A stretch of DNA of 46,280 bases. Origin: Rickettsiales bacterium. Lineage in GTDB: Bacteria; Pseudomonadota; Alphaproteobacteria; Rs-D84. The stretch lies in assembly GCA_031279085.1 (NCBI GenBank), contig JAITJD010000025.1:1-46280 (forward strand). The letters run 5' to 3'. Within the stretch, counting starts at the first letter, position 1. Each line of letters begins with the position of its first letter. Below are positions 7,285 to 46,280 of the stretch, one piece after another. The notes beneath the pieces are model-generated. The model saw only the letters and a list, made by a program, of their open reading frames with translations, did not search any database and was not told the origin of the DNA. The translations under genes were made by a program, and so were the position numbers.

Positions 7285-7441
7285 CCAGAAATCTTCAACC
7301 AAAAATCTCCCCGAAAAGCTAGGGGCGGCAAAGCCGCCAAGCTTTTCTCCCCTCTTTATCAAGAGGGGCTAAGCCCCAAGCTTGGATTAGTCCCCCCATT
7401 GGCGCGCCAGGTTTTGAGCTTGGGAGACGCCGAGGGGGGCA
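7285..7441 (+). repeat. Composite hairpin repeat, copy 3 (right half) between convergent genes
   Basis: AAATCTCCCCGAAAAGCT and AAGCTTTTCTCCCCTC form a stem around a GGCGGCAAAGCCGCC core, followed by CTCTTTATCAAGAGGGG. Only the right half of the composite unit is present. It sits between the 3' ends of rsmH and the protease gene, where it could act as a structured bidirectional 3' end, although there is no clear U-run. Confidence 0.75.
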
Positions 7442-8921: not shown

Positions 8922-9647
8922 ATGAAGAAAAGCGACATAAAATCTTATATCGAATCCAACAAAGACGACATCAACAATATTATCGCCAAAAATCTTTTGT
9001 CGAAAAATATGTACGCCGGATTTGCCAAGGCGCGGATAATGATAGAAAACCAAGTGCTGATGCCGTCAAAAAGCGGAACGCCGAACAATGTCATTCCGCT
9101 TTTGCTGAATTACACATATATTCAGAACCAGCAAAGCACTTTTGACTATATAATAAAATCACCATTCGCCGTAATAGACGGATGCGCTATCCGCGAAGTT
9201 CACTCATGTTTGTGCAAAAATACGAACATCAGGGGCGGCGCGCCGCGTTTGTTTGAATGCCAATTGGCAAAATTGAACATATATCCGCCTGATTACAATA
9301 TTGCAATTCAGAAAATGAACGATGTCTATTATTATATGTCCGACGCCAATCTTGAACCTGTCGCAAAAGCCATGCGCGTTCATTTTGACATGATAGCGAT
9401 CCAGCCTTTCACAGATTATAACAAACGCACGACAAGAATGATTATGAATTGGGTTCTGATGAAAAACCATTATTCTCCGATAATTTTCCACCACGTCAAG
9501 GATCGGGACAAATATTTGAAAGCAATCGCTGAAAAAGCCAAAAGCAATAACGGTGAATACGAATTATTTATGCTGAATACCATGTTGCGCACACAGAACG
9601 AATTTATAAAAGTCTTGAAAAACTCTCAGGCATTCAAGGCTCCTTAA
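8922..9647 (+). CDS. Fic-fold protein with degenerate active-site motif
   Basis: This 241-residue protein has the Fic layout: an N-terminal helical part with AIREVHSCLC (about 88-97), then HFDMIAIQPFTDYNKRTTR at about 154-172. In active Fic enzymes that segment reads HxFxxIHPFxDGNGRTGR, where His is catalytic and GNGR binds the nucleotide phosphates. Here His is Gln, the first Gly is Tyr and the second Gly is Lys; Pro-Phe, Asn, Arg and the flanking helices remain. The fold is therefore recognisable but ordinary AMP transfer is unlikely. No antitoxin-like gene adjoins it. Its last 14 bases overlap the 3' end of the converging EnvC-like gene. Confidence 0.72.
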   Translation: MKKSDIKSYIESNKDDINNIIAKNLLSKNMYAGFAKARIMIENQVLMPSKSGTPNNVIPLLLNYTYIQNQQSTFDYIIKSPFAVIDGCAIREVHSCLCKNTNIRGGAPRLFECQLAKLNIYPPDYNIAIQKMNDVYYYMSDANLEPVAKAMRVHFDMIAIQPFTDYNKRTTRMIMNWVLMKNHYSPIIFHHVKDRDKYLKAIAEKAKSNNGEYELFMLNTMLRTQNEFIKVLKNSQAFKAP

Positions 9648-10773: not shown

Positions 10774-11574
10774 CTACGGCGCGGAAAACAGCGCATCGCG
10801 CGTGCACGATACATTCGTGCCATAACGTATGCAATATGAACAGTTAAACGAGCAATAGGCCAGGCATTCCGCATGCGTGTCATACGGGAAGCTGAACACC
10901 CACGCGCCCAGCACATAAATATTATCGACGCTATCGACGCGGCACCAGCAATTCAAACCGTATGTTGATTCAGATGGAACAGAACCGTTTTTTGTAGTAG
11001 TTGTAAGACACGCGGCTACACCGTTCACCTTATGACTCCCATTGTACACAGACCACGCGGTGCCCCAGTGCGGAACCTCCCAGTTTTGAGATTTTAAAGT
11101 GCTCCACGAAGGCGCGCCGCCAGCGCCTGGCGTGGACATTATCGCATTATCTACATATTCTTTTGTGGCCGCGTCCGTCGTGTCTGTCGGGGCGCCCAGG
11201 CTTGTGATTTTCGCACTGCCCATAGCTATCGCGCCCGTCATAGTCCCGCCGGCAACAGGCAGATAATCAGACCCGTTCGGTATGGTCGGCAGCTGTTCGG
11301 CGGGAACCTTGCCGTCAGCCCCTAAGGAAGCTACTCCGTCTGCAACGCCTTTCTGAGATATGGGAACCAACGCGTTTACTGCTGTTGCTATATCCGAATG
11401 ACTGGCCTTGGTAGCCAGACCGCCACGAACAAAGCCTTCGGTAGCCAGAACTTTCAGCTTGGGCTCTGAGTCGCTTGATTCTTCCGCATGAACAGAGCTT
11501 ATTGTTGCAATCCCCGCCACAGATACTATCGACATCATATTAGCTATAAACCGAGGATTTATTCTGGATATCAT
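10774..11574 (-). CDS. Secreted chimera: phage-tail-fibre-like module plus Cys-rich CWC/ALFS domain
   Basis: This 266-residue protein has a long signal peptide (cleavage probably after SSVHA, residue 30). Residues about 80-150 read like repeats of phage tail-fibre proteins: SLGADGKVPAEQLP, then YLPVAGGTMTGAIAMG and DTTDAATKEYVDN. From about 170 a Cys-rich domain begins with WSVYNG, continues with NCWCRV, GAWVFSFPYDTHAEC, CLAYCSFNCSYC, and ends RDALFSAP. The same C-terminal pattern occurs in the secreted protein at 23536-24006. The function is unknown; a surface fibre or adhesin is a guess. A good ribosome binding site (AGGGAG) and promoter precede the start. It lies between the EnvC-like gene and tyrS, all on the minus strand, but appears independently transcribed. 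Confidence 0.8.
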   Translation of the reverse strand: MISRINPRFIANMMSIVSVAGIATISSVHAEESSDSEPKLKVLATEGFVRGGLATKASHSDIATAVNALVPISQKGVADGVASLGADGKVPAEQLPTIPNGSDYLPVAGGTMTGAIAMGSAKITSLGAPTDTTDAATKEYVDNAIMSTPGAGGAPSWSTLKSQNWEVPHWGTAWSVYNGSHKVNGVAACLTTTTKNGSVPSESTYGLNCWCRVDSVDNIYVLGAWVFSFPYDTHAECLAYCSFNCSYCIRYGTNVSCTRDALFSAP

Positions 11575-22659: not shown

Positions 22660-23355
22660 GTTTTAGGGGCGCCATGAGTGGGACTAAGGCCCGAGCTTGC
22701 GGCGCACCCCTCTTGATTAAAGATGGAACAAAGAGCAAACTTGGACATGCCCCTCTTGATAAAGAGGGGAGAAAAGCTGGGAGCTTGCGTTAGCCAAGCG
22801 ACCTAAGCTTTTCGGGGAGATTTCTTTTTAATTAATATTTAACATCTAGAAACTTAAATCATAAATTCTATTAGTACCAATCTTTAACCACAAATCCCCC
22901 AAGAGTTTTTAGGCTCGCCATGCTCGCCAACAAACTCTGTCCCCCTTTACCAAGGGGGACAAATCCGAGCACGGGACATGCCCCTCTTGATAAAGAGGGG
23001 AGAAAAGCTGGGCGGCTTTGCCGCCCTTAGCTTTTCGGGGAGATTTTTGTTTTAGCAGTAAAAGAATATTTCTTCTTCCTTTTTTGTTTATAAGAAAAGA
23101 TTGTTTGTTTTTTTACTATTAAGAATAAATCCTTCGTATAAACCATAAATTCTATTAATACCAATTTTTAACCACAAATCCCCCAAGAGTTGCTAGCTTC
23201 GCCTACGGCTCAGCAAGCCAACTCTGTCCCCCTTTATCAAGGAGGACTAATCCGAGCTTGCGGGGAGTTGTGCCCCTCTTGATAAAGAGGGGAGAAAAGC
23301 TGGGAGCTTGCGCCAGCCAAGCGACCCAAGCTTTTCGGGGAGATTTTTGGTTAAC
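22660..23355 (-). repeat. Composite hairpin repeat array (two full units and a half)
   Basis: In minus orientation. Unit one (about 22740-22978) has a short spacer (TTAATATTTAACATCTAG type) and a GCGTTAGCCAAGC core. Unit two (about 22979-23250) has the long spacer and a GGCGGCTTTGCCGCC core, and its left stem has the GCTAGC...GGCTCAGCAAGCC core. A half unit (about 23275-23350) follows. Outer hairpins CCCCTCTT-GATA-AAGAGGGG and CCCCCTTTACCAAGGGGG repeat throughout. No gene is present here. Confidence 0.9.
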
Positions 23356-23397
23356 TAACATCGACTAAATAATCATTCAAATAATCATTTTTCTCAA

Positions 23398-23492
23398 TTG
23401 ACAATAATTTGAAAACAGTTCAAAATATAAAAGTAAAGTTTCTATAAAACTATGCCTAATCCAAACCTCCCTTTGGATTAGGCGTTTTTTTA
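23398..23492 (+). ncRNA. Candidate small RNA or attenuator: promoter, short transcript and strong terminator
   Basis: TTGACA (23398-23403) with CAAAAT 17 bp on is a possible promoter. It would give a transcript of about 60 nt ending in a strong hairpin: CCTAATCCAAA, loop CCTCCC, TTTGGATTAGG, then CGTTTTTTTA (23457-23492). The loop sequence is anti-Shine-Dalgarno-like. Loop plus 3' arm are the exact complement of the segment CCTAATCCAAAGGGAGGTTT at 23539-23558, at the start of the next gene. The terminator is clear; the promoter and an RNA function are inferred. Confidence 0.5.
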
Positions 23493-23535
23493 TTTTTAAA
23501 AATCCCTGATTTCTGCGACATTTTTTCTTTGATTT

Positions 23536-24006
23536 ATGCCTAATCCAAAGGGAGGTTTGTTATGTACAATCTTGGGCATGATTATGGCTGTTGCGGTGTC
23601 GGTTAGTACGGCAGACGGGGCAACAGGCTATGCGTGTTATTCTTCAACACCGACAAGCTCGACTTCATGCAGTAGTTCTACATACACCTTATACACAGGC
23701 GGCTGGTCGGTGTATGGCTGCACCGGCAGCAATGTCAGATTATTTTACGGCGCCAGCGGTTGCTCTACCACATCTGGAACTTATGGTGTTGCGGGCAGTC
23801 CGACATTTACTTCCAGCGGCGGCCAGTATTGCTGGTGCAAGATGTACGGAACAGATTTGGGTTCTGTGTCGGGTTCATGGGTCTTCAACTCCACCTACAG
23901 CACCGCGTCTGATTGCGCGTACTATTGCGCTCGCAACTGCGCGAGCTACGCCAAGGATAATTCCGGCTTTCGGTCGGCGCTGTTTTCTGGTGTGAGTATT
24001 AATTAA
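23536..24006 (+). CDS. Small secreted Cys-rich protein with CWC/ALFS domain
   Basis: 156 residues. Starting at 23536 gives a signal peptide MPNPKGGLLCTILGMIMAVA, cleavage likely near TADGA. The mature protein is rich in Ser, Thr, Gly, Tyr and Cys. Its last 85 or so residues follow the same plan as the C-terminus of the protein at 10774-11574: GGWSVYG, then YCWCKMYG, GSWVFNSTYSTASDC, YYCARNCASY, and RSALFSG. The start is uncertain: 23536 has no ribosome binding site, while GGGAGG at 23550 is ideally placed for an out-of-frame ATG at 23562 that encodes only 14 residues. In-frame ATGs at 23578 and 23584 would shorten the signal peptide. The gene stands alone between two repeat blocks. Confidence 0.7.
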   Translation: MPNPKGGLLCTILGMIMAVAVSVSTADGATGYACYSSTPTSSTSCSSSTYTLYTGGWSVYGCTGSNVRLFYGASGCSTTSGTYGVAGSPTFTSSGGQYCWCKMYGTDLGSVSGSWVFNSTYSTASDCAYYCARNCASYAKDNSGFRSALFSGVSIN

Positions 24007-24009
24007 AAA

Positions 24010-24265
24010 AGGGGGGACTAATCCAAGCACGGGCTTAGCCCCTCTTGGTAAAGAGGGGAGAAAAGCTAGGAGCTTGCGTTAGCCAAGCGACCCTAGCTTT
24101 TCGGGGAGATTTCTTTTTAATTAATATCTAGAAACTTAAACTATAAATTCTATTAGTACCTATCTTCAACCACAAATCCACCAAGAGTTTCTAGGCTCGC
24201 CATGCTCACCAATAAACTCTGTCCCACTTTACCAAGGAGGACAAAGCCAAGTTTTGAACTTGATG
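24010..24265 (-). repeat. Composite hairpin repeat (short-spacer unit)
   Basis: Minus orientation: CCCCTCTTGGTAAAGAGGGG, AAAAGCTAGGAGCTTGCG with AGCCAAGCGACCCTAGCTTTT, GGGGAGATTTC, short spacer with ATCTAGAAACTTAAACTATA, then AACCACAAATCCACCAAGAGT, a GGCTCGCC core and AACTCTGTCCCACTTTACCAAGGAGGAC. The last hairpin has lost perfect pairing (CCCAC against GGAGG), so this copy is decaying. Confidence 0.85.
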
Positions 24266-31388: not shown

Positions 31389-32213
31389 TTAGTCCAAAGC
31401 TTTGATAATCTGATCGTACGGTATGGCGCCCGGGAATGCCTGGTCGCCGATGATCAGAAACGGAGTTCCGCCAATTTGGAAATGATTCGCCAATTCGCGA
31501 ACCTGAGCCAACTCGCGCGCAACAACCGGTCCGTTCATGTCTGTTTCCAGCTGCTTGACATCCAAGCCTGCTTCCTTGGCCACTTTCATGACATTCTTAT
31601 GAATTTTTTCAGCAGCTTTTGATTGGTCTTTCACATCGTCCTGAGTATAGTATTCTTTATCCATCAGCAACTTGTCCAAAGCGGCCGCTTTGTCATTGCC
31701 TTGCAGTTTTGCGGCAATGGAAGCTTTCGCGGGCGCGTCAGACAAAGGCCCGTGGATAGAGAAGTTCTTTACCACAACGCGAACATCGTCGCGGTCTGCC
31801 AAGACGCGCTGCAATTCGCCATGAACGCGGCGGCAGTATCCGCATGAATACGCGCTGAACAATATGATTGTTTTCTTGGCTTCCGGATTTCCCAAAACGG
31901 GCGCGTCGGCAACCAGCTTGTCCATATTGGAGCTGACATAGCGGCGAACTTCGCGATTGCTGTCTTTTGATTTTTGCGCTTGCATGCCGTCAGCCATTTT
32001 CTGCAAGATACCGGGATTAACCGATGTCAGGTAATAAGGCGTCCACAAATTGCTTACGCCGCCGGCGATCAATATAATAGCTAGAATCTTGATTAATTTT
32101 TTTATCAAATGCGATGCTGATATTTGAGATTTTTCCCCTTTATGCTTTACCAGCGAACCGGCAAACAAGTAGAGGACTATACCCAATAACAGAATCAGTA
32201 TTGTCCAAGTCAT
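31389..32213 (-). CDS. DsbA-like thiol oxidase (membrane-anchored)
   Basis: 274 residues from MTWTILILLLG, which has AAAAGGAG 6 nt upstream; the earlier ATG (39 bases) is not supported. Membrane segments at about 1-18 and 34-56 are followed by a thioredoxin-fold domain with FSAYSCGYCRRVHGEL (CGYC active site, about 133) and the cis-Pro loop GGTPFLIIGD (about 252). DsbA/BdbD-type proteins make disulfides in exported proteins. That fits the many Cys-rich exported proteins in the window, though a direct link is inferred. The long helix between the halves (SKAAEKIHKNVMKVAKEAG) is typical of the DsbA helical insertion. Confidence 0.85.
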   Translation of the reverse strand: MTWTILILLLGIVLYLFAGSLVKHKGEKSQISASHLIKKLIKILAIILIAGGVSNLWTPYYLTSVNPGILQKMADGMQAQKSKDSNREVRRYVSSNMDKLVADAPVLGNPEAKKTIILFSAYSCGYCRRVHGELQRVLADRDDVRVVVKNFSIHGPLSDAPAKASIAAKLQGNDKAAALDKLLMDKEYYTQDDVKDQSKAAEKIHKNVMKVAKEAGLDVKQLETDMNGPVVARELAQVRELANHFQIGGTPFLIIGDQAFPGAIPYDQIIKALD

Positions 32214-32541
32214 ATTTTTCTCCTTTTCTGTTGAACAATCAAATCCTATCAAATTTCAGAAAAAGAGCAAGCGGAAAATTAAAATAAGATATTAAATTAA
32301 GATATTAAATAATGTATGATTTAAGCCAGCGGCTAAGTGCGAATGCACGACTGGCCGGACAAAATATTTGTCAATATATAAGATTGTTTAGATTTATTAA
32401 GAATTTTCTTAGCGATAAAAATATTTTTTAAGTATCGCGGGTTTGGACAAATTGCACGAGCGGGTTAACTGCTTATGTAAGTTCGTAATTTAGCTGGATT
32501 TTTATCTTAGAATTTTATATGATTTTGTTGAAAGGAAATTT
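32214..32541. other. Gene-free stretch with a short tandem repeat and a nested hairpin
   Basis: No gene supported. AAGATATTAAATT is repeated in tandem at about 32286-32310. At about 32323-32355 GCCAG...CTGGC encloses GTGC-GAAT-GCAC, a nested hairpin. AT-rich -10 candidates lie before the methyltransferase gene, but no clear promoter can be chosen. Confidence 0.35.
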
Positions 32542-33462
32542 ATGGGACAACTTGCTCTAAGCCTTGATACACAAATAACGGCGCGACCAGTTCTTAAATG
32601 GGCTGGCGGCAAAGGGCAATTATTACCACAGATAAATTCGTTGCTGCCAAATATGAAAAATGTGAAAAGGTATATAGAGCCATTTGTTGGCGGCGGCGCG
32701 GTGTTTTTTGACTTTGCCGGCAAATATGATTTTGATGAAGTTTTTTTGTTTGATATAAATCCCGAACTTGTTATTTTGTATAATGTAATTAAAAATAATG
32801 TAAACGATTTAATTTCGGAATTATCAAAAATACAAAGTCAATATTTTGCGGCAATAGACCGGGCAAAATACTATTATGACAGACGCGCGGAATATAATAA
32901 TTTCCCTAAAAAAGTAAACGCCAATATGTTTTTTTCTGATTTTGTCAGGCGCGCGGCATTGACGATATTCTTAAATCGCACCTGCTTTAATGGATTATTT
33001 CGTGTGAACAACCAAAATAAGTTCAATGTTCCTGTGGGGAAATATACTAATCCGCGGATTTTAGATATTGAAAACTTATTGAATGTATCGCGGGTTTTAC
33101 AAAAAGCAGAAATTAAACAAATTGATTTTGCTGCGGCCTTGGATTATGCCCATAAAGAATCATTTATTTATTATGACCCGCCGTATCGTCCAATTCGCAA
33201 AACATCGAATTTCAATTCTTATTCGGATATAGTTTTTGACGATAACGAACAGAAAAGATTAAATCAAATTTTTGCAAAAGCGAATAAACTTGGGGCATCG
33301 CAAATGTTATCTAATTCCGACCCAACCAATTATATTGACGATTTATTTTTTGATGATTTGTATTCGGAATTTAATATTCACAGAGTTATGGCAAGTCGCA
33401 GAATCAACAGCAAAGCAGACGGACGAAGTGAAATTCGTGAATTGTTGATAACAAATTATTAG
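32542..33462 (+). CDS. Dam/M.DpnII-type DNA adenine-N6 methyltransferase
   Basis: 306 residues. Motif I is LKWAGGKGQLLPQI (about 16-29) and RYIEPFVGGGAVFF follows. Motif IV is YYDPPYRPI (about 210-218), typical of the D12-class alpha-type enzymes; FLNRTCFNGLFRVN (about 150) is another family mark. Dam, M.DpnII and M.MboI of this group methylate GATC; that target is likely but not certain here. AAAGGAA precedes the ATG. Base composition is clearly richer in A and T than the surrounding core genes, which suggests transfer. A short ORF resembling part of a restriction enzyme follows 9 bp later. Confidence 0.9.
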   Translation: MGQLALSLDTQITARPVLKWAGGKGQLLPQINSLLPNMKNVKRYIEPFVGGGAVFFDFAGKYDFDEVFLFDINPELVILYNVIKNNVNDLISELSKIQSQYFAAIDRAKYYYDRRAEYNNFPKKVNANMFFSDFVRRAALTIFLNRTCFNGLFRVNNQNKFNVPVGKYTNPRILDIENLLNVSRVLQKAEIKQIDFAAALDYAHKESFIYYDPPYRPIRKTSNFNSYSDIVFDDNEQKRLNQIFAKANKLGASQMLSNSDPTNYIDDLFFDDLYSEFNIHRVMASRRINSKADGRSEIRELLITNY

Positions 33463-33471
33463 GAATCATAA

Positions 33472-33684
33472 ATGAAAAAAGATGGAATTGGCGGGGCAAA
33501 TACTCTAACAGGTTTAGCATTTGAGGGTAAAACGGATTTAGAAACATTTCTGACCAAACATTCCGGTTATTCGTTTAAGAAGCCAGCATACAAAGATGTC
33601 TTAGGATACATAATCTCAGTTGGCTGCTCGTATTATTTTGAGTATATACCGTTAAATAAGTTTAATTTGCCTGTTCCAAAATGA
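33472..33684 (+). pseudogene. Probable N-terminal remnant of a type II restriction endonuclease
   Basis: 70 codons: MKKDGIGGANTLTGLAFEGK, then TDLETFLTKHSGY. The opening GGANTxTGLxFE followed by TDL resembles the N-terminus of several type II restriction endonucleases. Those enzymes are several times longer, so this is a stump, cut shortly before the repeat block that starts near 33.8 kb. The last part (YYFEYIPLNKFNLPVPK) may be non-native. It follows the methyltransferase by 9 bp, as a restriction partner would. Family resemblance is from memory of the motif and should be tested. Confidence 0.5.
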
Positions 33685-33797
33685 ATAAAAAATACATATA
33701 ATAGCCATTTGAATTGAATGATTATAAAAAGAATCCCGCAAAACCTTTGTGTCTGCTGGGTTCATTTTTTTACCTGGGGTAATTTTTCACTACTTAA

Positions 33798-34494
33798 ACA
33801 AACATCTCCCCGAAAAGCTAAGGTCGCTTGGCTAACGCAAGCTCCTAGCTTTTCTCCCCTCTTTATCAAGAGGGGCAACCGAGTTCAAAACTTGACGCAA
33901 GAATTCGGTCTTGGCTTGTCCCCCTTGATAAAGGGGGACAGAGTTTATTGGCGAGCGCAGCGAGCCTAGAAACTCTTGGGGGATTTGTGGTTAAAGATTG
34001 GCACTAATAGAATTTATGATTTAAGTTTCTAGATGTTAAATATTAATTAAAAAGAAATCTCCCCGAAAAGCTAGGGTCGCTTGCTTACGCAAGCTCCTAG
34101 CTTTTCTCCCCTCTTTATCAAGAGGGGCTAACCCCGTGCTCGGATTAGTCCCCCTTGGTAAAGGGGGACAGAGTTGGCTTGCTGAGCCGTAGGCGAAGCT
34201 AGCAACTCTTGGGGGATTTCTGGTTAAAGATTTGTATTAATAATTATATTCTGGATTTCTGGGTAATAATAGAAAAACAAATATTCTTTTCTTATAAACA
34301 AAAATACAAAGAAAAATCTTCTCTGTTATAATTAAAAAGAAATCTCCCCGTTTTTCCGGCAAGCAAGCTTGCTCGGAAAACCTCCCCTCTTTATCAAGAG
34401 GGGCATGTCCCAAGTTTGCTCTTTGTTCCATCTTTAATCAAGAGGGGCGCACTGCAAGCTTGGTTTTTGTTTCGCCTTTTATCAAATAGAGGGG
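33798..34494 (+). repeat. Composite hairpin repeat array (two full units, mixed cores)
   Basis: Plus orientation. A right half (33798-33880) with a CGCTTGGCTAACGCAAGC core is followed by a short-spacer unit (about 33920-34130) with the GGCGAGCGCAGCGAGCC core. Then a long-spacer unit (about 34150-34402) has the GCTGAGCCGTAGGCGAAGC core and a TTTTCCGGCAAGCAAGC...GGAAAA right stem. A decayed half (34430-34494) ends the block. The spacer of the second full unit has diverged. Short ORFs here are repeat translations. Confidence 0.9.
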
Positions 34495-46074: not shown

Positions 46075-46280
46075 ATTAATAGCCTCTCTTGATAAAGAGG
46101 GGGAATCCTAGCGTGGCTTAGCCCCTCTTGATAAAGAGGGGAAAATCCGAGCACAAGGTTGGCCCCTCTTGATAAAGAGGGGAGAAAAGCTTGGCGGCTT
46201 TGCCGCCCTTAGCTTTTCGGGGAGATTTTTGTTTGAGTATTAAAAATAAGAATATTTCTTCTTCTTTTTTGTTTATAAGA
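46075..46280 (-). repeat. Composite hairpin repeat at the window end
   Basis: Minus orientation: three CCTCTTGATAAAGAGG hairpins in a row, then GAAAAGCTTGGCGGCTTTGC with CGCCCTTAGCTTTTC, GGGGAGATTTTTG, and the start of the long spacer (AAGAATATTTCTTCTTC...GTTTATAAGA), cut by the window end. Confidence 0.85.

What the first reader, a model, noticed from the sequence alone, without database searches (positions are those of the whole stretch)
10774..11574. New C-terminal Cys domain (WSVY...CWC...WVF...ALFS) shared by two secreted proteins
The last 85-100 residues here and in the gene at 23536-24006 follow one plan: WSVY, CWC-[RK], G-[AS]-WVF-x(3)-Y-x-T-x(3)-C, YC-x(2)-NC, R-x-ALFS. The genes lie 12 kb apart and their N-terminal parts are unrelated. 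The shared tail could be an attachment or sorting domain. I do not know it as a described domain.
Basis: seen in the sequence. Interest (0 to 1): 0.7.

Follow-up and report, generated by a model that had tools for sequence, protein, structure and literature searches.

The report
Hypermutated cysteine tail of secreted proteins
The shared protein tail is a surface-display domain that a reverse-transcriptase mutator (a diversity-generating retroelement) rewrites in related bacteria, and this tiny genome carries about fourteen scattered copies, ten of them with the mutator's fingerprint although no mutator is found in the assembly.

Summary
Both proteins end in the same ~100-residue Cys-rich domain (BLASTP E 9e-12), which matches nothing in Pfam, NCBIfam, PHROGs or PDB. 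It is not a sorting tag. It is the variable-region (VR) domain of a diversity-generating retroelement (DGR).

The genome (0.81 Mb, 85% complete) holds 14-15 copies. Ten near-identical paralogues differ in a C-terminal stretch at codon positions 1 and 2, not 3 (NNC/NNT). Ten related genomes carry the full cassette (target, adenine-rich template TR, small ORF, DGR-type RT), and their TRs encode this tail; TR-to-adjacent-VR changes fall at template adenines. Columns with A in another genus's TR are hypervariable here (23/30, against 5/72 elsewhere; p 3e-12). Silent sites inside the VR are three times more uniform than outside, as expected if dispersed copies were rewritten in trans.

No RT or TR was found in this assembly. 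Most near-complete relatives with the tail also lack the RT; three keep cassette remnants.

The VR looks like one face of an alpha-helix, unlike the C-type-lectin beta-hairpin of known DGR proteins (periodicity p ~0.002; low-confidence model). The named gene (10774-11574) is an older, divergent member, and its own rewriting is unproven.

The parts
10774..11574 (-). The finding's gene: 266-aa secreted protein with signal peptide, phage tail-fibre-like middle (GSDYLPVAGGTMTGAI...DAATKEYVDNAI) and Cys-rich VR-type tail; divergent single-copy subtype with an extra Cys pair
   Evidence: Translation; PHROGs tail and tail-fibre matches to residues 42-148; no Pfam match
10777..11061 (-). Cys-rich tail domain of the 266-aa protein
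   Evidence: BLASTP with the second protein, E 9e-12; same subtype in G002 and G022/G018
10783..10893 (-). Stretch homologous to the VR (after WVF); aligns codon for codon with the G022 TR-encoded peptide
   Evidence: Against the G022 TR: A sites 16/26 changed, non-A 37/94 changed; too diverged to prove rewriting of this copy
23536..24006 (+). Second gene: 156-aa secreted protein, one of ten near-identical dispersed paralogues (first codons overlap a conserved leader element, so the true start may be downstream)
   Evidence: Translation; own-genome search, 74-91% identity to the query for the ten
23701..23988 (+). Cys-rich tail domain of the 156-aa protein
23887..23967 (+). Hypervariable VR codons (NNC/NNT) between fixed TGC/GCG/TCT codons; predicted alpha-helix
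   Evidence: Codon alignment; statistics; periodicity; model
23968..23988 (+). Conserved 3' end of the VR (TTT CGG TCG GCG CTG TTT TCT); expected place of the retrohoming initiation site (inferred, not tested)
   Evidence: Conserved in the ten paralogues and in relatives' TR and VR
23398..23426 (+). Promoter-like TTGACA-17-CAAAAT, conserved upstream of the paralogues
23452..23559 (+). Leader: terminator-like hairpin 23452-23485, whose arm 23462-23483 is also perfectly complementary to the ribosome-binding/start region 23538-23559
   Evidence: (z -7.4)
23241..23362 (+). Upstream copy of the ~110-nt direct repeat flanking the gene
24012..24160 (+). Downstream copy of the flanking direct repeat (54 matches in the genome)

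Best explanation
The shared tail is the variable-region domain of a diversity-generating retroelement. In this family of small alphaproteobacterial genomes a DGR reverse transcriptase copies an adenine-rich template RNA, misincorporating opposite A, and the mutated cDNA replaces the 3' end of target genes. Those genes encode secreted proteins ending in this disulfide-stabilised tail. SHOWN in related genomes: RT, TR, and VR with mismatches at template A. SHOWN in this genome: ten dispersed paralogues whose tails carry the same A-site fingerprint and whose silent VR sites are homogenised, meaning they were rewritten from a common template after (or while) they spread. INFERRED: the retrohoming step itself and its action in trans on scattered copies; disulfides; a VR formed by one face of an alpha-helix with Cys/Ala packing against the sheet; a function in recognising variable surfaces or ligands, as an adhesin-like display. 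NOT SHOWN: that the RT still exists in this genome, or that the named gene at 10774-11574, an older and more divergent member, has itself been rewritten.
For: Ten paralogues: pairwise codon-position differences in the VR .366/.297/.130 against .092/.128/.204 upstream; invariant VR columns contain 0/38 A against 43/206 elsewhere (Fisher p 7e-4). TR/VR pairs next to an RT in ten relatives with this tail; in the nine measured, adjacent VRs have 44-75% of A sites changed and 0-3% of ~100 non-A sites changed. Targets beside those RTs are secreted proteins with the same tail. Independent test: template A columns of G014 are hypervariable here in 23/30 cases, against 5/72 non-A columns, p 3e-12; the TR reconstructed from the ten VRs is 88/102 identical to the real G014 TR. 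Four-fold silent sites differ 9.4% in the VR against 28.9% upstream (p .005), replicated in G020 (12.9% against 24%, p .03). The RTs carry the PIGNxxSQ motif and their best PDB match is 8ub7 (E 2.6e-69).
Against: No RT, TR or cassette ORF in this genome's assembly; it is 85% complete, so absence is not proof. The named gene differs from the nearest same-subtype TR at 39% of non-A sites, so its own diversification cannot be shown. The structure model is of low to medium confidence (pLDDT 62) with no fold match. No binding partner is known.
Confidence: 0.93

Rival explanations
1. Ordinary multigene family under diversifying selection and gene conversion, without a DGR: duplicated surface proteins whose exposed residues are selected to vary.
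For: Dispersed paralogues flanked by repeats, surface-type proteins, and no RT in the assembly.
Against: Point mutation under selection would not leave third positions of hypervariable codons fixed, would not empty invariant VR columns of A (0/38), would not make silent VR sites more uniform than flanks, and would not place variability at the template adenines of another genus (p 3e-12). Relatives have complete TR/RT cassettes for this same tail.
Confidence: 0.04
2. Donor-copy model: the DGR rewrote only one target next to the RT, and rewritten copies were then scattered by recombination between the flanking repeats, so the dispersed genes are frozen archives rather than trans targets.
For: Repeats flank several paralogues on both sides; remote VRs in relatives usually show some non-A drift (1-20%); T. 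denticola has comparable leftover targets (PMC4891356).
Against: Silent VR sites are about three times more uniform than the rest of the same genes (replicated), which fits rewriting after the copies had diverged. Some remote VRs match the current TR at nearly all non-A sites (1/108 changed for L181, 1/67 for L177).
Confidence: 0.2
3. Sorting, anchoring or secretion tail.
For: C-terminal, Cys-rich, shared by secreted proteins with unrelated N-termini.
Against: It is the most variable part of the protein and is encoded by DGR templates. A sorting signal should be constant. In L196 the domain is followed by tens of further residues of the same protein.
Confidence: 0.03

Closest known systems
Diversity-generating retroelements (Bordetella phage BPP-1 type)
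   Same: In related genomes: RT whose closest solved relative is 8ub7 (which I take, from memory, to be the BPP-1 RT), A-rich TR, VR at the 3' end of the target, A-specific changes.
   Different: In the window's genome neither RT nor TR is found. Targets are a large dispersed family with a new Cys-rich tail, and a conserved ~100-aa ORF of unknown family sits between TR and RT where an Avd-type gene would be expected.
Treponema denticola remote and orphan DGR targets (TvpA family; Nimkulrat et al. 2016, PMC4891356)
   Same: One TR/RT serving 2-7 dispersed targets; isolates that lost RT and TR but keep targets with the A signature.
   Different: There the targets are FGE-sulfatase-type C-type lectins. 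Here the domain is different and repertoires reach 30 copies in a ~1-Mb genome (G020).
C-type lectin (CLec) variable domains of DGR proteins
   Same: C-terminal VR on a constant beta scaffold, variable residues exposed (inferred).
   Different: No CLec/FGE match. Predicted order is four strands then a helix, with the VR in the helix; CLec VRs are described as a hypermutated beta-hairpin (PMC10743442).
Cyanobacterial dispersed DGR variable proteins (PMC7517822)
   Same: Intragenomic dispersal of one variable domain onto different N-termini.
   Different: CLec domain, mostly cytosolic regulators; here secreted Cys-rich proteins.

Membership tests
Diversity-generating retroelement (as a system present in the window's genome) | DGR-type reverse transcriptase in the genome | tested here: inconclusive
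   No RVT_1 and no match to the family RT profile in G000, but the assembly is only 85% complete
Diversity-generating retroelement (as a system present in the window's genome) | Template repeat (TR) matching the VRs | tested here: inconclusive
   Degenerate pattern with 3 mismatches finds only VRs, no all-A copy; 15% of the genome is missing
Diversity-generating retroelement (origin of the tail's variability) | VR variation confined to template adenines | tested here: met
   Ten paralogues in G000; TR/VR pairs in ten relatives
Diversity-generating retroelement (in related genomes) | RT of the DGR clade (PIGNxxSQ instead of QGxxxSP) next to the TR | tested here: met
   16-sequence alignment with invariant P-I-G-N...S-Q-W and Y-DD; closest PDB entry 8ub7; PHROG 1423. 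Reading of the motif is from memory
Diversity-generating retroelement (in related genomes) | VR at the 3' end of a protein-coding target | tested here: met
   Targets in L095-L104 end within a few residues of the VR; the domain is internal in L196, where no TR was found
Diversity-generating retroelement (in related genomes) | Accessory protein (Avd or HRDC type) | tested here: inconclusive
   A conserved ~100-aa ORF without Pfam match lies between TR and RT in most cassettes; one 23S-IVP/bAvd-like ORF noted in L101
Diversity-generating retroelement | Initiation-of-mutagenic-homing site and active retrohoming | not testable with these tools
   Needs an experiment or read-level population data
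C-type lectin fold variable domain | CLec/FGE-sulfatase sequence match | tested here: not met
   No Pfam match to CLec or FGE for the window proteins or for the relatives' targets
C-type lectin fold variable domain | CLec fold with VR as beta-hairpin/loops | tested here: inconclusive
   Model with pLDDT 62 places the VR in a helix; periodicity 92-98 degrees per residue, p .001-.002; Foldseek finds no CLec or other match

The most novel reading that the evidence does not exclude
A DGR variable scaffold that is not a C-type lectin: a small Cys-clamped sheet-plus-helix domain whose hypervariable surface is one face of an alpha-helix. It is used as a dispersed repertoire of up to 30 secreted receptors in ~1-Mb genomes, rewritten in trans and then repeatedly frozen by loss of the reverse transcriptase while the repertoire persists.
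Probability: 0.55. Interest if true: 0.85.

Novelty: new variant of a known kind. Interest (0 to 1): 0.72.

Why it matters
In the published survey of 31,007 DGRs (PMC8144416), annotated variable regions were systematically C-type lectins, and that survey could not detect targets far from the RT. A variable helix on a Cys-rich scaffold would be a second natural way to carry massive sequence variation. A ~1-Mb genome spending up to 30 genes on such proteins argues that recognising variable partners is central to its life. The family also gives a natural series, from intact cassettes through damaged ones to orphan repertoires, in which to test whether diversity is kept after the generator is lost.

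Tried and rejected
Tail as a known domain: no Pfam, NCBIfam, PHROGs or PDB match. RT, TR or cassette ORF in the own genome: none. The scan of named genomes returned one locus only, L155 from 'Rickettsiales bacterium Gx485_bin105', with no TR/VR pair in the part scanned. Viral contigs: no relative with the first profile, one with the second (L196). Phage records hold no tail relative, only RT relatives. First structure model (three sequences, pLDDT 46) too poor to use; second (pLDDT 62) gave no fold match. A TR/VR-like pair in L105 is a low-complexity repeat and was discarded; L111 and L113 gave none. The finding's own gene was compared with the best same-subtype TR and is too diverged for a verdict. 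The variable patch upstream (codons 45-53 of the alignment) lacks the clean third-position pattern and was not taken as a second VR.

Full report
WHAT IS THERE. The gene at 10774-11574 lies on the minus strand and encodes a 266-aa protein with a signal peptide, a phage tail-fibre-like middle part and a Cys-rich tail. The gene at 23536-24006 lies on the plus strand and encodes a 156-aa secreted protein. No Pfam, NCBIfam, PHROGs or PDB family matches the tail. The window is a whole contig (C8) of a 0.81-Mb, 39-contig, 85%-complete genome that holds 14-15 copies of the tail.

A HYPERVARIABLE FAMILY. Ten of the copies (including 23536-24006) are near-identical dispersed paralogues. Their codon alignment shows a C-terminal stretch where positions 1 and 2 of about 15 codons vary almost freely while position 3 is nearly fixed (NNC, NNT, NNG), separated by fixed TGC, GCG and TCT codons. 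Pairwise differences at positions 1/2/3 are .366/.297/.130 in this stretch and .092/.128/.204 in the rest of the gene. Invariant columns contain no A in the stretch (0/38) but 43/206 outside it (Fisher p 7e-4). This is the fingerprint of adenine-directed mutagenic reverse transcription.

THE MACHINE IN RELATIVES. Among 100 related genomes the tail occurs in 40, nearly all in one family of 0.5-1.1-Mb genomes. In a draw of 385 genomes of the class, matches are this genome, two of the same family and one weak outsider. In ten relatives (G002, G009, G014, G021, G022, G039, G041, G043, G049, G053) a reverse-transcriptase gene lies close to an adenine-rich template that encodes exactly this tail, e.g. 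G014: WVYNNDNSSADNCANNCANNCANNARNNSDFRSALFT. In the nine measured, VRs near these templates differ from them at 44-75% of A sites and 0-3% of about 100 non-A sites (the tenth, G021, has 12 of 12 mismatches at A). The RTs carry PIGNxxSQW and YxRYCDDF-type motifs and are closest in the PDB to 8ub7 (E 2.6e-69 as a profile, 5.8e-42 for one sequence), which I take from memory to be the BPP-1 DGR reverse transcriptase. The targets beside the RTs are secreted proteins with the tail fused to different N-terminal parts, including collagen-like and tail-fibre-like repeats.

LINKING THE TWO. The template inferred from the ten VRs of the window's genome is identical at 88 of 102 positions to the real template of G014, a different genus. 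Without using the inferred template: columns where the G014 template has A are hypervariable here in 23 of 30 cases, against 5 of 72 other columns (p 3e-12; G002 template p 1e-14). Four-fold silent sites differ by 9.4% within the VR but 28.9% in the rest of the same genes (p .005). G020, with about 30 copies (21 analysed), gives 12.9% against 24% (p .03). Greater silent uniformity together with extreme A-site variability is what rewriting from one template after duplication produces; selection on point mutations does not.

IS THE SYSTEM STILL THERE? No RT, TR or cassette ORF was found in the window's assembly. Of 45 family members at least 90% complete, 29 have the tail; only nine of these have a near-full-length RT of this clade, and eleven genomes with five or more tails have none (tally). 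Remnants show the route. G020 has a truncated template run into the last ~55 codons of the RT, and the template piece still differs from the neighbouring VR only at A (9/9). G035 has an RT fragment with a stop next to a tail gene. G052 has a shortened template and an intact cassette ORF but no RT. Orphan targets after RT loss are known in Treponema denticola (PMC4891356). For the window's genome both readings remain open.

THE NAMED GENE. The tail of 10774-11574 has an extra Cys pair. The same subtype occurs in G002 (five copies) and in G018/G022, and the G022 template encodes it (LGGSWVFENTNSSAANCANNCANNCANCVQNGTNNSCARSAVL). Against that template it has changes at 16/26 A sites but also 37/94 non-A sites. 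It therefore belongs to a DGR-type domain, but its own rewriting is not shown.

STRUCTURE. Variability along the VR has a period of 92-98 degrees per residue in two genomes analysed separately (permutation p .002 and .001), as expected for an alpha-helix with one variable face and a Cys/Ala face. A four-sequence AlphaFold2 model (pLDDT 62) gives four strands, then a helix covering the VR and a second short helix, with no match in PDB or BFVD. Published DGR variable domains are C-type lectins with a hypermutated beta-hairpin (PMC8144416, PMC10743442). A helical VR would be new, but the model is weak.

FUNCTION (inference). Signal peptides, adhesin-like and tail-fibre-like N-terminal parts and Cys clamps point to extracellular display. 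By analogy with known DGR proteins the variable face probably binds variable surfaces of host or neighbouring cells.

VERDICT. Observation confirmed; 'sorting domain' rejected; the domain is a DGR variable region of an undescribed type, in a dispersed repertoire.

Noticed in passing
window 23398-23559; same element upstream of the other core paralogues: Promoter followed by a leader whose arm (23462-23483) is perfectly complementary to the ribosome-binding/start region (23538-23559) and can instead form a terminator-like hairpin (RNA z -7.4). The middle base differs between copies together with its partner (CCTCC/GGAGG here, CCACC/GGTGG elsewhere). Possible RNA switch controlling these genes; MPNPKGG may be leader sequence rather than protein.
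   Followed up: partly
window 22748-22867, 23241-23362, 24012-24160, 33791-34157, 7303-7396, 46115-46242: About 110-150-nt repeat with 54 matches in the 0.81-Mb genome; it flanks several core paralogues in direct orientation and may be the means of their dispersal. No Rfam match.
   Followed up: partly
L101:2721-3047, L095:4787-5113, L096:4102-4425, L097:3905-4231, L102:4828-5127 and others: Conserved 99-108-aa ORF between TR and RT in most cassettes, without Pfam or confident PHROGs match; a candidate new DGR accessory protein.
   Followed up: partly
L106, L108, L109, L112, L114: RTs of the same clade with TR/VR pairs whose target ends are unrelated to the Cys tail and unknown to Pfam (those tested: L106, L108, L109, L114), so this RT family serves several undescribed variable domains.
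   Followed up: no
L107:4384-6399 and L110:2065-2964: A second RT clade whose VR lies near the N-terminus of the target (in L107 ahead of an ATPase-like region, judged by eye), unlike the usual C-terminal place.
   Followed up: no
L201:1089-1382, L095:4519-4776, L182:3549-3839, L197:1707-1988: Small secreted Cys protein (CPSGYTSAGTADSCLISSPAGSCIMYAP type) beside tail genes or inside the cassette; in the window's genome it follows tail copy L025 and may mark a former cassette site.
   Followed up: no
L196:405-5438 (IMG/VR 3300028797_006173): 1677-aa protein with leucine-rich BspA-like repeats (judged by eye) carrying the same tail domain internally, on a contig filed as viral; no TR/VR pair found there.
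   Followed up: partly
window 32001-34000: Low-GC stretch (35.5% against ~49%) holding a D12-class adenine methyltransferase (32542-33459) next to the dispersed repeat; probably acquired.
   Followed up: no
window 8922-9644: Fic/DOC-family protein two genes from the finding's gene, next to an M23 peptidase gene.
   Followed up: no
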